Origin: an uncultured Eubacteriales bacterium
GTDB lineage: Bacteria > Bacillota > Clostridia > Oscillospirales > Ruminococcaceae
NCBI GenBank assembly: GCA_900314975.1
Contig: OMXI01000029.1
Coordinates: 1-41,412, forward strand
Direction of reading: 5' to 3'
Length of the DNA stretch: 41,412 nt
Shown here: one piece after another, positions 34,446-37,216 of the stretch
Position numbering within the stretch: position 1 is the stretch's first letter
Layout: each line of letters begins with the position of its first letter
Notes under the pieces: generated by a model
Databases searched by the model: none
Seen by the model: the letters and a program-made list of their open reading frames with translations, nothing else
What the model was told of the DNA's origin: nothing
Program-made: the position numbers and the translations under genes

Positions 34446-34757
34446 CTATTTGTCGATCATTTCGAGTATAGCAGGTTTAGGTATTGCACCGACATTCTGC
34501 GCGGTGATCTTACCGTTTTTCATCACCACCAGCATAGGAATGCTCGACACACCGAAATGCGCAGCAAGCTCGCCCTGCTCGTCAACATCGACCTTGCACA
34601 CCTTGACATCTTCTCTCTCGTCAGCTATCTCGTCCACCAGCGGCGAGACCATTCTGCACGGACCGCACCAGTTTGCGAAAAAGTCGATAAGCACGGGCTT
34701 GTCCGAGCGCATGACCTCCTGCTCAAAATTAAGATTAGTAAGATTAATAACTGCCAT
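34446..34757 (-). CDS. trxA: Thioredoxin
   Basis: A 103-aa thioredoxin with the active site WCGPC (30-34), the upstream strand KPVLIDFFANW and the cis-Pro strand GVSSIPMLVVMKNG. It passes electrons to peroxidases and reductases in the cytoplasm. AAAGGCGG precedes the ATG, 22 nt after the FTR-like gene. It is last in the gpx-ohrR-FTR-trxA unit. No NADPH-thioredoxin reductase gene is seen in the window. Confidence 0.96.
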   Translation of the reverse strand: MAVINLTNLNFEQEVMRSDKPVLIDFFANWCGPCRMVSPLVDEIADEREDVKVCKVDVDEQGELAAHFGVSSIPMLVVMKNGKITAQNVGAIPKPAILEMIDK

Positions 34758-34779
34758 AATTATTCCGCCTTTCTTTTAT

Positions 34780-34980
34780 TCAGTCTTTTGATTTATAATA
34801 AAGCATACAGTGGCAAAAGCCCTCGAAATCGGGGTCGGCGACCTGGTCTCTGAACTCCTTGCACATGCATTTCGTGTCGGGAGTTTTTTCAAGTCTGCAC
34901 GGGCAGTAGCCGCCTTTTTTTGCAAGACCTTCCTTGATAGCCTTTACAACTTCCTTGTCCTCGTTAAGCCTTATGCTCAT
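34780..34980 (-). CDS. Ferredoxin-thioredoxin reductase catalytic-chain-like protein
   Basis: A 66-aa protein with three paired-Cys motifs: CPC (26-28), CMC (38-40) and CHC (56-58). These are the signature of the FTR catalytic subunit, which uses a 4Fe-4S cluster next to a redox disulfide to reduce thioredoxin with ferredoxin electrons. Spacing differs from chloroplast FTR (CPC-16-CPC-8-CHC): here it is 9 and 15 residues, and no FTR variable chain is nearby. The GGYCPCR start and FEGFCHCMLYY end are well conserved in tone with clostridial relatives. AAGGGAAGGTG precedes the ATG. Its position directly before trxA supports a role in thioredoxin reduction. Confidence 0.85.
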   Translation of the reverse strand: MSIRLNEDKEVVKAIKEGLAKKGGYCPCRLEKTPDTKCMCKEFRDQVADPDFEGFCHCMLYYKSKD

Positions 34981-34983
34981 ACA

Positions 34984-35430
34984 TTACACCTTCCCTTCAA
35001 AATCGCCCAGCAGCTTGTACAGCAGCATATACAGCGTTTTTGCATCCTGCTCGTCAAGTGCCGAGCAGCTGCCCATCTGCGCAGGGATATCCTTTGCCGC
35101 CTCGCGCATCTCCCAGCCTTCCTGCGTCAGAGATATCTTCACCACGCGCTCGTCCTCGCTGCAGCGCCTGCGCTCGATAAGCCCCTGCTTTTCCAGCTTT
35201 TTCAGCAGCGGTGTGAGCGTGCCGTTGTCAAGATACAAACGCCTGCCTATCTCGCCCACAGTCACACAGTCGCTCTCCCACAGCACCATAAGCACAATGT
35301 ACTGCGTGTAAGTCAGCCCCAAAGGCTTCAGCAGCGGCGTGTAGCTGTTCACCACCTGCCGCGCGCACGCGTACAGCGGAAAGCATATCTGGTTTTCAAG
35401 CTTTAGCTGCTCGTAGTTTTCGCTTTTCAT
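34984..35430 (-). CDS. ohrR: MarR/OhrR family peroxide-sensing repressor
   Basis: A 148-aa winged-helix regulator. The N-terminal NQICFPLYACAR motif places a Cys at residue 16, matching the peroxide-sensing Cys15 of B. subtilis OhrR, and LGLTYTQYIVLMVLWE is also typical. The DNA-binding helices span ~50-95 (VTVGEIGRRLYLDNGTLTPLLKKLEKQGLIERRR). Three ATG codons (35439, 35433, 35430) are possible; the last gives the family-like length but the ribosome binding site is unclear in all. It begins within 12 nt of the gpx stop. It probably represses its own operon through the palindrome at 36016-36036. Confidence 0.88.
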   Translation of the reverse strand: MKSENYEQLKLENQICFPLYACARQVVNSYTPLLKPLGLTYTQYIVLMVLWESDCVTVGEIGRRLYLDNGTLTPLLKKLEKQGLIERRRCSEDERVVKISLTQEGWEMREAAKDIPAQMGSCSALDEQDAKTLYMLLYKLLGDFEGKV

Positions 35431-35440
35431 CATTATCATC

Positions 35441-35983
35441 TCACATAAGTTTTTTAATATACTCCACGACCTTCTTCATATCCTCGGTCGGCTCAAAGCG
35501 CTTGACAACATTACCGTCCCTGTCAACAACAAACTTGGTGAAATTCCACTTTATGTCGGGATTATTCTTGTAGTCCTTGTCCATCTTTTTCGCCACAGCC
35601 TTCACAGCCAAAGCCTTTACACCGCTGCCAAAGCCCTCAAAGCCCTGCTGCGACTTCAGATATTCAAAAAGCGGCAGAGCGTTCTCGCCGTTTACGTCAG
35701 ACTTTTTCATCTGCGGGAACTGCGTGTTGTACTTGAGCGTGCAGAATTCGTGTATCTCCTCGTCGGTGCCCGGGGTCTGCCCCGCGAACTGATTGCACGG
35801 AACGTCGATTATCTCCAGTCCCTTTGCGTGATATTCCTCGTACAGCTTTTCAAGCGGCTCGTAGTGCGGAGTAAACCCGCAGCCCGTCGCGGTGTTGACG
35901 ATAACTATCACCTTTCCCTTGAACTCGGAGAGCTTAAGCTCGCTGCCGTCGGGTCTTGGTACGCTGTAATCGTAAATGTTCAT
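35441..35983 (-). CDS. gpx: Glutathione peroxidase-family thiol peroxidase
   Basis: A 180-aa Gpx-fold enzyme with the catalytic tetrad elements: Cys35 in VNTATGCGFTPHY (Cys, not selenocysteine), Gln in PCNQFAGQTPG, Trp and Asn in KWNFTKFVV. Bacterial Cys-Gpx enzymes generally use thioredoxin, not glutathione, which fits a trxA in the same operon. It reduces H2O2 and organic hydroperoxides. AAAGGAGG precedes the ATG. First gene of the redox operon, from a near-consensus promoter overlapped by an OhrR-like operator. Confidence 0.95.
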   Translation of the reverse strand: MNIYDYSVPRPDGSELKLSEFKGKVIVIVNTATGCGFTPHYEPLEKLYEEYHAKGLEIIDVPCNQFAGQTPGTDEEIHEFCTLKYNTQFPQMKKSDVNGENALPLFEYLKSQQGFEGFGSGVKALAVKAVAKKMDKDYKNNPDIKWNFTKFVVDRDGNVVKRFEPTEDMKKVVEYIKKLM

Positions 35984-36015
35984 ATATAATTCCTCCTTTG
36001 GTTTTGTCAGCCTTT

Positions 36016-36036
36016 ATTGTTTGCAATTATATTGTA
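36016..36036. promoter_or_regulatory. Probable OhrR operator overlapping the gpx -10
   Basis: On the minus strand ACAATATAATTGCAAACAAT contains two interleaved inverted repeats, CAAT-ATA-ATTG and ATTG-CAAA-CAAT. It resembles the repeated TACAATT-AAATTGTA pattern of the B. subtilis ohrA operator. It covers the -10 hexamer and the expected start site, where a repressor would block transcription. Confidence 0.6.
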
Positions 36037-36059
36037 TCAAATATATTTTGATTTGTCAA
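36031..36059 (-). promoter_or_regulatory. Sigma-A promoter of the gpx-ohrR-FTR-trxA operon
   Basis: Minus strand TTGACA (36059-36054), 17 bp spacer, TACAAT (36036-36031), about 48 bp before the gpx ATG. Confidence 0.9.
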
Positions 36060-36155: not shown

Positions 36156-36713
36156 ATGTCAATGGGCAGGCTCACAGCCGTATTGCTCGCAGCAGTGATC
36201 TCCTGCGCAGCGCTGACCGCCTGCGGCAGCCCGTCGGCAGACAGCGTCTCCGCACAAACGGGCAAAGCACAGGAAAACACCGTGACCTATGATACAACCG
36301 TTTTCACCGTTTGTGCTCCGAGCGGCTGGTGTGCAGCTCCCGCGCCCGATACGCTAAAAGAATATGACGGCAAGACAAATCCCGATCAGGTGTATGTGAT
36401 AAAAAACGGCAAGTCAGCCGACGATATAATGAAATATCCTTATATATGGATAAGCTATTATCAGAACGCCGAAAGGTTTGTCAGTCCCGAGTCGATGTAC
36501 AGCGACTCGCGCAAAACCACCGTTGATATCAACGGCACAACGTGGGAGGGCTTTACCTACACAAGTTCGGGCTACCCCGGCGCGTGCATAACGCTTCGCG
36601 AGGGAGAATCGCTGTGGGTAGCAATGTTCGTCCTCTCTCACGGAGAGTATAATATCGACCTCAACGAGCAAGACGTAAAGACCGTACTTTCGAGTCTTAA
36701 AATAAAACAATAA
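36156..36713 (+). CDS. Small lipoprotein of unknown function (copy 1)
   Basis: A 185-aa protein with a lipoprotein signal (AVISCAALTACG, lipobox Cys ~23) and a single outer domain. It shares with the next gene the blocks DQVYVIK (after a charged loop), YPYIWISYYQ / YPSILISYFS, TWEGFTY / TWEGYTY, LWVAMFVL / LWVCKFTL and the ending DVKTVLSSLKIK / DVKDILSSLKVK. The two are therefore paralogs with ~140-residue cores. No known family was recognised. Starts with the ATG at 36156. Confidence 0.82.
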   Translation: MSMGRLTAVLLAAVISCAALTACGSPSADSVSAQTGKAQENTVTYDTTVFTVCAPSGWCAAPAPDTLKEYDGKTNPDQVYVIKNGKSADDIMKYPYIWISYYQNAERFVSPESMYSDSRKTTVDINGTTWEGFTYTSSGYPGACITLREGESLWVAMFVLSHGEYNIDLNEQDVKTVLSSLKIKQ

Positions 36714-36733: not shown

Positions 36734-37216
36734 ATGAAACTTACAAAATTTATCGCGTTAATGCTGATAGTGGTCATTTCGTGCAGCGCACTCGTGTCCT
36801 GCGGCGACAACGAGCTTGACACGGGCGTTTTCTCTGTCAAAACATCGAGTGACTGGGAAATCGTAAAGCGCAAGGTCGACGGCAAGGAAAAAGACGACCA
36901 GGTGTACGTTATCAAGGGCGGCGAGGATAATAACAGCTATCCAAGCATCCTGATATCCTACTTCTCCGACCCGTCACAGTACAAGGATGAAAAGAGCTTT
37001 TACAAGGACGCAAAAGACGTGTCCGACATAACTGCAGGCAGCAGAACGTGGGAGGGCTATACCTACTCTCTGTTTGGAAGCAGCGAAGCGTGCTTTACCG
37101 CAAAAGAGGGCAGCGGACTTTGGGTGTGCAAGTTCACACTCGAAAAGGGCGGAGAGAAGATATCCGTCAGCGACGGCGACGTTAAGGATATTCTTTCAAG
37201 CCTCAAAGTAAAGTAA
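36734..37216 (+). CDS. Small lipoprotein of unknown function (copy 2)
   Basis: A 160-aa paralog of the upstream lipoprotein with a signal ending ALVSCG. It is shorter between the lipobox and the core (DTGVFSVKTSSDWEIVKRKVDGKEKDD). Shared blocks are listed in the entry for copy 1. AAGGGGAAAG precedes the ATG, 20 nt after the first copy, with no separate promoter, so they form one unit. It is Lys/Asp-rich and clearly extracytoplasmic. Confidence 0.82.
   Translation: MKLTKFIALMLIVVISCSALVSCGDNELDTGVFSVKTSSDWEIVKRKVDGKEKDDQVYVIKGGEDNNSYPSILISYFSDPSQYKDEKSFYKDAKDVSDITAGSRTWEGYTYSLFGSSEACFTAKEGSGLWVCKFTLEKGGEKISVSDGDVKDILSSLKVK

What the first reader, a model, noticed from the sequence alone, without database searches (positions are those of the whole stretch)
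34446..36059. Self-contained peroxide-defence operon: Gpx, OhrR-type sensor, FTR-like iron-sulfur protein and thioredoxin
Four tightly packed genes encode a Cys-peroxidase, a one-Cys MarR/OhrR sensor, a 66-aa FTR catalytic-chain-like protein and thioredoxin, with a probable OhrR operator over the -10. Seen: gene order, motifs, promoter and palindrome. Known: FTR reduces thioredoxin with ferredoxin; bacterial Cys-Gpx uses thioredoxin. Inferred: ferredoxin to FTR-like to Trx to Gpx electron flow, induced by organic peroxide. OhrR usually controls ohr, so pairing with gpx and a ferredoxin-linked reductase in an anaerobe is notable.
Basis: partly seen in the sequence, partly recalled or inferred. 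Interest (0 to 1): 0.7.

Follow-up and report, generated by a model that had tools for sequence, protein, structure and literature searches.

The report
Tiny iron-sulfur thioredoxin reductase in peroxide operon
A gut-type anaerobe seems to recharge its only thioredoxin with a 66-residue iron-sulfur protein instead of the usual flavin enzyme, and keeps both genes in what looks like a peroxide-sensing operon; the small protein and a thioredoxin lie side by side in many related bacteria.

Summary
The four genes are real: gpx–ohrR–ftr–trx, window 35983→34446 (minus), gaps 1, 3 and 22 nt, behind TTGACA-17-TACAAT with an OhrR-box-like site over the -10. The four-gene operon is local: 10 of 208 distinct loci of this FTR family have gpx alongside on the same strand. 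OhrR-family control of gpx is already known (Pseudomonas gpx–ospR), and the sensor may be two-Cys rather than one-Cys.

The stronger finding is the ftr–trx pair. The 66-aa protein belongs to a short FTR subfamily (CPC-9-CxC-15-CHC) that lies beside a thioredoxin in 143 of 208 distinct loci. The window's genome (98.5% complete) has one thioredoxin match, this one, and no recognisable flavin thioredoxin reductase. In its genus, 12 of 29 genomes have FTR only, 15 flavin reductase only, 1 both, 1 neither; in the family, 9 genera hold FTR-only and flavin-only species. Within the genus this rests on few independent events, and 55 of 101 FTR-bearing family genomes hold both. Best reading: a minimal ferredoxin:thioredoxin reductase, the sole recognisable one here. 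No biochemistry was possible; structure prediction was off.

The parts
35441..35983 (-). gpx: Cys-type glutathione-peroxidase-family thiol peroxidase; Cys35 (peroxidatic), Cys63, Cys81 (probable resolving)
   Evidence: PF00255 122 bits; aligned with 3cmi HYR1; all three Cys in 11 of 11 relatives
34984..35439 (-). ohrR: MarR-family, probable organic-peroxide sensor; reactive Cys19, possible second Cys125
   Evidence: NF052638 162.7 bits, below its 200 cut-off; best PDB match 1z91/1z9c organic hydroperoxide regulator, E 2.6e-39; 2pfb/2pex OhrR next
34780..34980 (-). short FTR: 66-aa ferredoxin:thioredoxin reductase catalytic-chain homologue, CPC-9-CMC-15-CHC
   Evidence: PF02943 25 bits, cut-off 22; hhalign 95.5%, E 1.5e-8 against canonical FTR/FDR; 9/15 spacing in 203 of 208 distinct loci
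34446..34757 (-). trxA: thioredoxin, WCGPC; the only PF00085 match in this genome
   Evidence: (TIGR01068 117.9 bits, cut-off 96.8)
36031..36059 (-). sigma-70-type promoter TTGACA-17-TACAAT of the operon
   Evidence: 11 of 12; conserved in relatives
36022..36036 (.). OhrR-box-like inverted repeat TACAAT-ATA-ATTGCA overlapping the -10
   Evidence: (one hit, 0.10 expected); published box TACAATTNAATTGTA in PMC6034001
36036..36052 (.). second inverted repeat ATCAAA-N5-TTTGAT between -35 and -10, possible further operator half

Best explanation
The 66-aa protein is a minimal ferredoxin:thioredoxin reductase. Reduced ferredoxin gives single electrons to a [4Fe-4S] cluster held by four of the six cysteines; the other two (by analogy with plant FTR, recalled: the second Cys of CPC, Cys28, and of CHC, Cys58) form the disulfide that reduces the neighbouring thioredoxin. 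In this genome it is the only recognisable thioredoxin reductase and that thioredoxin the only one found, so the pair stands in for the flavin enzyme (TrxB or FFTR). In this clade the pair has been joined to gpx and an OhrR-type repressor: organic peroxide oxidises OhrR, the operon is derepressed, Gpx destroys the peroxide with electrons from thioredoxin, and thioredoxin probably also resets OhrR. Shown by sequence: gene order, families, six aligned Cys, conserved promoter/operator block, ftr-trx linkage, no TrxB or Ohr match, alternation with flavin reductases. Inferred: cluster, ferredoxin as donor, thioredoxin reduction, OhrR binding, induction, OhrR reset.
For: All six Cys aligned with canonical FTR/FDR; the 9/15 CxC spacing is kept in 203 of 208 distinct loci, 9/14 in 2. 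(The invariant Cys of the 46-row alignment are partly by construction, since searched with Cys-bearing peptides; the 13 genus rows are not.) Thioredoxin within 300 nt on the same strand in 143 of 208 distinct loci (119 of 179 with at least 1 kb on both sides; 140 of 208 at a stricter E of 1e-15), a thioredoxin 1 kb or more away in only 2 of those 179. Window genome: one PF00085 match, one PF02943 match, best TIGR01292 match 88.8 bits against a cut-off of 343, and no CxxCD motif in long ORFs of its 8 flavoprotein loci. Genus: FTR only 12, flavin only 15, both 1, neither 1, of 29. Family: FTR only 46, both 55, flavin only 249, neither 46, of 396; better genomes 38, 37, 184, 25 of 284; 9 genera hold FTR-only and flavin-only species. 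Of 39 FTR-only genomes searched for PF00085, 29 have exactly one full-length thioredoxin and in 28 it lies near FTR. 13 of 14 flavin reductases read from FTR-less genus members lack one or both NADPH motifs, so both alternatives fit a ferredoxin donor. Promoter/operator block conserved in 11 loci; no promoter-like site on the minus strand between the operon's genes. No OsmC/Ohr match in 29 of 29 genomes. Thioredoxin reduces oxidised OhrR of Chromobacterium in vitro (PMC3469484, abstract and passages).
Against: Cys spacing differs from canonical FTR (9/15 against 14/12), and a profile of the genus proteins (A1) finds no solved FTR by sequence. 55 of 101 FTR-bearing family genomes also hold a flavin reductase and 46 of 396 hold neither, so FTR is not always a replacement; in 7 genera FTR occurs only beside a flavin reductase while sister species are flavin-only. 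65 of 208 distinct loci lack an adjacent thioredoxin. Within the genus the alternation rests on few events (3 changes of the FTR-only label; 2 independent pairs, no significance possible). Two of the nine mixed genera rest on an FTR-only genome under 90% complete (G106, G276). Placing the sole thioredoxin behind a repressor is odd unless it leaks. The OhrR box differs from the published consensus at 2 positions, its first half is also the -10 (TAAAAT in 2 of 11 relatives), and its distal half varies.
Confidence: 0.66

Rival explanations
1. The short FTR and thioredoxin are a housekeeping pair (disulfide repair, class III ribonucleotide reductase and so on); gpx-ohrR merely moved in front of it in one clade, and peroxide control is secondary or leaky.
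For: ftr-trx without gpx is the rule; gpx-ohrR joined once within the genus (1 change). A ferredoxin disulfide reductase feeding class III ribonucleotide reductase in Methanosarcina barkeri is cited in PMC6262447 (seen as a reference title only).
Against: Order and tight spacing are kept in all 10 same-strand loci and the promoter block in the 11 loci aligned; no promoter-like site ahead of ftr on the minus strand. FTR loci elsewhere also carry oxygen-related genes: flavodiiron-like 13, rubrerythrin 5, gpx 13 of 216 loci, duplicates included.
Confidence: 0.2
2. The small Fe-S protein is not a reductase of thioredoxin but a redox relay, sensor or thioredoxin target; thioredoxin is reduced by an unrecognised flavoenzyme.
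For: Divergent spacing, no solved homologue by sequence, other pyridine-nucleotide-disulfide-like flavoproteins in the genome (8 matches), 46 of 396 family genomes with neither enzyme.
Against: All six FTR cysteines aligned and kept; alternation with TrxB/FFTR; none of the 8 flavoprotein loci shows a TrxB-type CxxCD in a long ORF.
Confidence: 0.1
3. The MarR protein answers to a signal other than organic peroxide (hypochlorite, sulfane sulfur, diamide-type stress).
For: The NCBIfam OhrR model scores below its cut-off (162.7 against 200); no Ohr match in the genus; a paper titled 'MarR family proteins sense sulfane sulfur in bacteria' exists (PMC11211675, search listing and start of abstract only).
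Against: Best solved matches are OhrR proteins; OhrR-box-like site; gpx as first gene.
Confidence: 0.2

Closest known systems
Ferredoxin:thioredoxin reductase catalytic chain (FTRc, PF02943) and archaeal/bacterial ferredoxin:disulfide reductase (FDR; canonical forms match PDB 4tpu and 7pwe)
   Same: three CxC motifs with all six Cys aligned; presumed job
   Different: 66 aa; the class's canonical forms run about 107 aa plus a C-terminal rubredoxin-like part; spacing CPC-9-CxC-15-CHC against CPC-14-CPC-12-C[YF]C; variable subunit not tested
[quoted passage not shown]
   Same: same proposed job and electron donor; FFTR-like proteins alternate with the short FTR in this genus
   Different: unrelated flavoprotein of about 300 aa
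Pseudomonas aeruginosa gpx-ospR operon (PMC4999210)
   Same: gpx followed by an OhrR-family two-Cys repressor, induced by organic hydroperoxides
   Different: no FTR or thioredoxin mentioned with the operon in the passages read
ohr-ohrR systems
   Same: OhrR-type sensor and OhrR-box-like operator
   Different: first gene is a Gpx; no Ohr/OsmC match in 29 of 29 genus genomes
C. difficile trxA1-trxB1 operon (PMC10880999)
   Same: thioredoxin and a ferredoxin-type reductase paired, linked to oxidative stress
   Different: the reductase is an FFTR; the paper names Fe-S types only in general, and its main text has no word beginning with FTR

Membership tests
FTR/FDR catalytic chain (PF02943) | score above Pfam gathering cut-off | tested here: met
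   25 bits, cut-off 22
FTR/FDR catalytic chain (PF02943) | six cysteines in three CxC motifs | tested here: met
   present in the window protein; invariant in 13 genus rows; motif in 205 of 208 distinct loci; aligned with canonical forms
FTR/FDR catalytic chain (PF02943) | canonical spacing between the motifs | tested here: not met
   9/15 against 14/12 in six canonical class members; plant 16/8 is recalled. Hence filed as a divergent short subfamily
FTR/FDR catalytic chain (PF02943) | [4Fe-4S] cluster; ferredoxin-dependent disulfide reduction | not testable with these tools
   no biochemistry; structure prediction switched off
FTR/FDR catalytic chain (PF02943) | variable subunit FTRv (said to be exclusive to oxygenic phototrophs, PMC9025218) | not tested
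OhrR | reactive N-terminal Cys in the NQ(L/I)CF motif | tested here: met
   Cys19, 11 of 11; aligned with OhrR chains
OhrR | NCBIfam OhrR equivalog cut-off (NF052638) | tested here: not met
   162.7 bits, cut-off 200; so 'OhrR-type', not certified OhrR
OhrR | OhrR box at the promoter | tested here: inconclusive
   1 mismatch to TACAATNNNATTGTA, 2 to TACAATTNAATTGTA; conserved but overlapping -10
OhrR | ohr as target | tested here: not met
   PF02566 in 0 of 29 genomes, in 12 of 14 controls
Two-Cys OhrR | second Cys about 105-110 residues after the first | tested here: inconclusive
   Cys125, 106 after Cys19; column Cys in 9 of 11, shifted by one in 1, Thr in 1; one residue off the 2pfb Cys in the ungapped alignment
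Thioredoxin-type Cys-Gpx | peroxidatic and resolving Cys, KWNF Trp | tested here: met
   Cys35, Cys81 and KWNF align with 3cmi; all in 11 of 11 relatives
TrxB/FFTR in this genome | strong TIGR01292 match | tested here: not met
   best E 2.4e-25, 88.8 bits, cut-off 343

The most novel reading that the evidence does not exclude
A 7-kDa, single-subunit [4Fe-4S] ferredoxin:thioredoxin reductase, far smaller than the thioredoxin reductases I know of, is the sole thioredoxin reductase of many gut and rumen Clostridia and has repeatedly swapped places with flavin reductases; in one clade the whole thioredoxin system of the cell sits under an organic-peroxide switch that thioredoxin itself resets.
Probability: 0.4. 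Interest if true: 0.75.

Novelty: new variant of a known kind. Interest (0 to 1): 0.6.

Why it matters
Thioredoxin systems of Clostridia have been surveyed as NAD(P)H- or ferredoxin-flavin-dependent (PMC10880999, passages). A short Fe-S reductase would be a further route, present in many gut and rumen species known mostly as metagenome-assembled genomes (titles), and fuelled by ferredoxin. It would show how small a thioredoxin reductase can be and how anaerobes that, like most Clostridia, are said to lack glutathione (PMC10880999) meet peroxide. It also offers an explanation for genomes that seem to lack any thioredoxin reductase.

Tried and rejected
Rejected: the four-gene operon as a conserved unit (10 of 208 distinct loci); OhrR-gpx pairing as new (PMC4999210); plain Fisher p values as proof of replacement (3e-6 genus and 4e-9 family; 5e-11 for the better genomes), because relatedness is not corrected: the SecA tree and the pairs test leave 2 independent contrasts in the genus, too few for significance. 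Led nowhere: solved-structure search with the FTR profile (two unrelated weak hits); literature on short FTR in Clostridia (held library only). Balsera 2013, Prakash 2018 and the 2018 PNAS FFTR paper are not held; what I say of them comes from citing papers or recall. Limits: one search scored 5 candidates per genome, and name only part of the genomes without a match, so same-direction contrasts (both against neither) could not be counted; the genomes and families are unnamed; Gpx, OhrR and thioredoxin near FTR were sought by phmmer with the window proteins only; gene calls in my scripts are plain ORFs; loci near contig ends are short, so missing neighbours are partly missing sequence.
Full report
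What is there. Four minus-strand genes with gaps of 1, 3 and 22 nt: gpx 35441-35983, a MarR/OhrR gene 34984-35439, a 66-aa FTR-like gene 34780-34980 and thioredoxin 34446-34757. All four pass their Pfam cut-offs, the FTR-like one narrowly (25 bits, cut-off 22). Upstream lies TTGACA-17-TACAAT and, over the -10, TACAAT-ATA-ATTGCA, the only site in the window within one mismatch of TACAATNNNATTGTA (0.10 expected). The published B. subtilis OhrR box is TACAATTNAATTGTA (PMC6034001, passages); the window site differs from it at two positions. A second inverted repeat ATCAAA-N5-TTTGAT sits between -35 and -10. Alignment of 11 distinct upstream regions shows this block as the best conserved part, but the -10 itself explains half of the box, TACAAT reads TAAAAT in 2 of 11, and the distal half varies. 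No promoter-like site on the minus strand lies between the operon's genes (a consensus scan).

The proteins. Gpx Cys35 and Cys81 align with Cys-containing regions of yeast HYR1 (3cmi; catalytic roles recalled); Cys35, 63 and 81 are present in 11 of 11 relatives. The best solved relatives of the regulator are OhrR chains 1z91 and 2pfb/2pex. Cys19 is in 11 of 11 relatives; Cys125 stands in a column that is Cys in 9 of 11, shifted by one residue in one and Thr in one. Two-Cys OhrR proteins use Cys pairs 105-110 residues apart (Cys21/Cys126 in C. violaceum, PMC3469484; C24/C134 in OspR, PMC4999210; abstracts and passages). So 'one-Cys' is doubtful, though not disproved. The NCBIfam OhrR model is matched below its cut-off.

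The FTR-like protein. Its motif is CPC-9-CMC-15-CHC. All six Cys are invariant in 13 genus proteins, and the 9/15 spacing holds in 203 of 208 distinct loci, 9/14 in 2; 3 lack the full motif, two of them (L186, L194) having lost cysteines in genomes (G380, G295) that also hold a flavin reductase. The invariance in the 46-row alignment is partly by construction, because searched with Cys-bearing peptides. Six canonical FTR/FDR proteins of the same class have CPC-14-CPC-12-C[YF]C and a C-terminal rubredoxin-like part. hhalign of the two profiles gives 95.5% and E 1.5e-8 with all six Cys in register. A profile of the 13 genus proteins finds no solved FTR by sequence, whereas a canonical member finds 4tpu and 7pwe. 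It is therefore a divergent short branch of a known family.

Neighbourhoods. I read 216 FTR loci: 13 genus, 101 family, 80 named species, 22 class; 208 have distinct FTR genes. A thioredoxin lies within 300 nt on the same strand in 143 of 208, downstream in 125; among 179 loci with at least 1 kb on both sides, 119 have it adjacent and 2 have a thioredoxin 1 kb or more away. By set: genus 13 of 13, family 70 of 100, class 16 of 22, named species 44 of 73. So 65 of 208 have none adjacent. gpx lies within 3 kb on the same strand in 10 of 208: nine in the window's genus and one in another genus (G098/L087). One more, L201, has ftr-trx with gpx and ohrR on the other strand. Other recurrent neighbours in the 216 loci, duplicates included and one representative each named by Pfam, are Crp/Fnr-type regulators 18, flavodiiron-like proteins 13, CcdA/DsbD-like proteins 7 and rubrerythrin 5. 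So ftr-trx is the unit, and oxygen-defence genes are joined to it in different ways.

Does it replace thioredoxin reductase? The window's genome, 98.5% complete, has one thioredoxin match, one FeThRed_B match and no real TrxB: the best TIGR01292 match is 88.8 bits, cut-off 343, and none of its 8 flavoprotein loci shows CxxCD in a long ORF. In 29 genus genomes the short FTR is in 13 and a strong TIGR01292 match (E 1e-58 or better; none over the family's cut-off) in 16: FTR only 12, both 1 (G001), flavin only 15, neither 1 (G025, 86% complete). In 396 family genomes: FTR only 46, both 55, flavin only 249, neither 46; in the 284 better genomes 38, 37, 184 and 25. Nine genera hold FTR-only beside flavin-only species; in two of them (g79, g118) the only FTR-only genome is under 90% complete. 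In seven genera (g43, g55, g64, g80, g81, g90, g94) FTR occurs only in genomes that also hold a flavin reductase, beside flavin-only species, so there it looks additional. Of 39 FTR-only genomes given to a thioredoxin search (of 46), 29 have exactly one full-length match (60 bits or more; 8 of these also have weaker partial matches), and in 28 of the 29 it lies within about 0.6 kb of FTR (G243 is the exception).

How independent is this? On a SecA tree of the 29 genomes the FTR-only label needs 3 changes (at least 2 forced), the lower-scoring flavin group 1 and the higher-scoring one 2. FTR presence as a whole needs 2 changes and gives 2 independent pairs; over 200 random pairings the flavin enzyme goes the other way in 1.4 of 2, does not differ in 0.6, and never goes the same way, too few for significance. 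The pattern fits replacement; the uncorrected p values should not be quoted as proof.

Which donor? My script read 15 of the 16 strong flavin reductases of the genus (L037 was not found). Only those of G010 and G001 show both GGGDTA and HRRDEFR; 13 of the 14 from FTR-less genomes lack one or both NADPH motifs. By the criterion used for C. difficile (PMC10880999, passages) most look FFTR-like. Both alternatives in this genus would then draw on ferredoxin, which suits the FTR reading. Ferredoxin as donor remains inferred.

Mechanism. Organic peroxide oxidises OhrR; the operon is released; Gpx reduces the peroxide and is recharged by thioredoxin; thioredoxin is recharged by the short FTR from ferredoxin; thioredoxin may also reset OhrR, as shown for C. 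violaceum OhrR in vitro (PMC3469484). No Ohr/OsmC match is found in 29 of 29 genus genomes, while 12 of 14 control genomes ring, so Gpx is a likely organic-peroxide enzyme. If there is no other promoter, the only thioredoxin found in this genome depends on a peroxide-controlled transcript, which needs a leak or an unseen start site.

What is known. FTR catalytic chains in other bacteria, and related Fe-S ferredoxin:disulfide reductases in archaea and bacteria, are known; the variable subunit is described as exclusive to oxygenic phototrophs (PMC9025218, PMC6262447, passages; Balsera 2013 and Prakash 2018 not held). The gpx-ospR operon is known (PMC4999210). A survey of Clostridia thioredoxin systems describes NTR and FFTR, mentions Fe-S types in general, and has no word beginning with FTR in its main text (PMC10880999). 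In the held library, searches listed no paper that, by title or the passages I read, describes short FTR in Clostridia; subscription papers are not covered.

Verdict. It is a new variant of a known kind: a short FTR subfamily tied to thioredoxin, probably the sole thioredoxin reductase of this organism, here placed in an OhrR-type peroxide operon.

Noticed in passing
L083:5121-8204, L084:4147-7242, L085:1-2575: In three genomes of one genus (g80) the short FTR is fused in frame to the N-terminus of an M16C/PreP-type peptidase (about 1030 aa; the third is cut by the contig end). Pfam was run on L083 only; function unknown.
   Followed up: partly
L112:2217-2312: Upstream of gpx in G022 the operator/-10 unit ATTTGATACAATATA is expanded into a tandem array of about 6.4 copies of 15 bp.
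   Followed up: partly
L087 (G098): The whole gpx-ohrR-ftr-trx operon occurs in a genome of another genus (g71), 66-95% identical per protein to the window's, close to the range of the window's own genus: horizontal transfer or a mis-binned contig.
   Followed up: partly
L186 (G380) and L194 (G295): Two short FTR genes that have lost motif cysteines, both in genomes that also hold a flavin thioredoxin reductase; they may be decaying copies.
   Followed up: no
L002 (G000:C87:13083-13289): A second, partial GSHPx match (profile positions 1-69, one TAG inside the match) in the same genome; possibly a decayed copy.
   Followed up: no
36156-36713 and 36734-37216: Two neighbouring lipoprotein-like genes without a Pfam family, divergent from gpx; homologues lie in 9 of the 216 FTR loci (7 after removing two duplicate records), all of them with the gpx operon.
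   Followed up: partly
L298:1489-1698: A variant short FTR with CPC-9-CMC-14-CHC spacing and CHCGLY in place of CHCMLY.
   Followed up: no
L026-L041: Most flavin thioredoxin reductases of the FTR-less genus members lack one or both NADPH motifs, so they may be ferredoxin-dependent FFTRs.
   Followed up: partly
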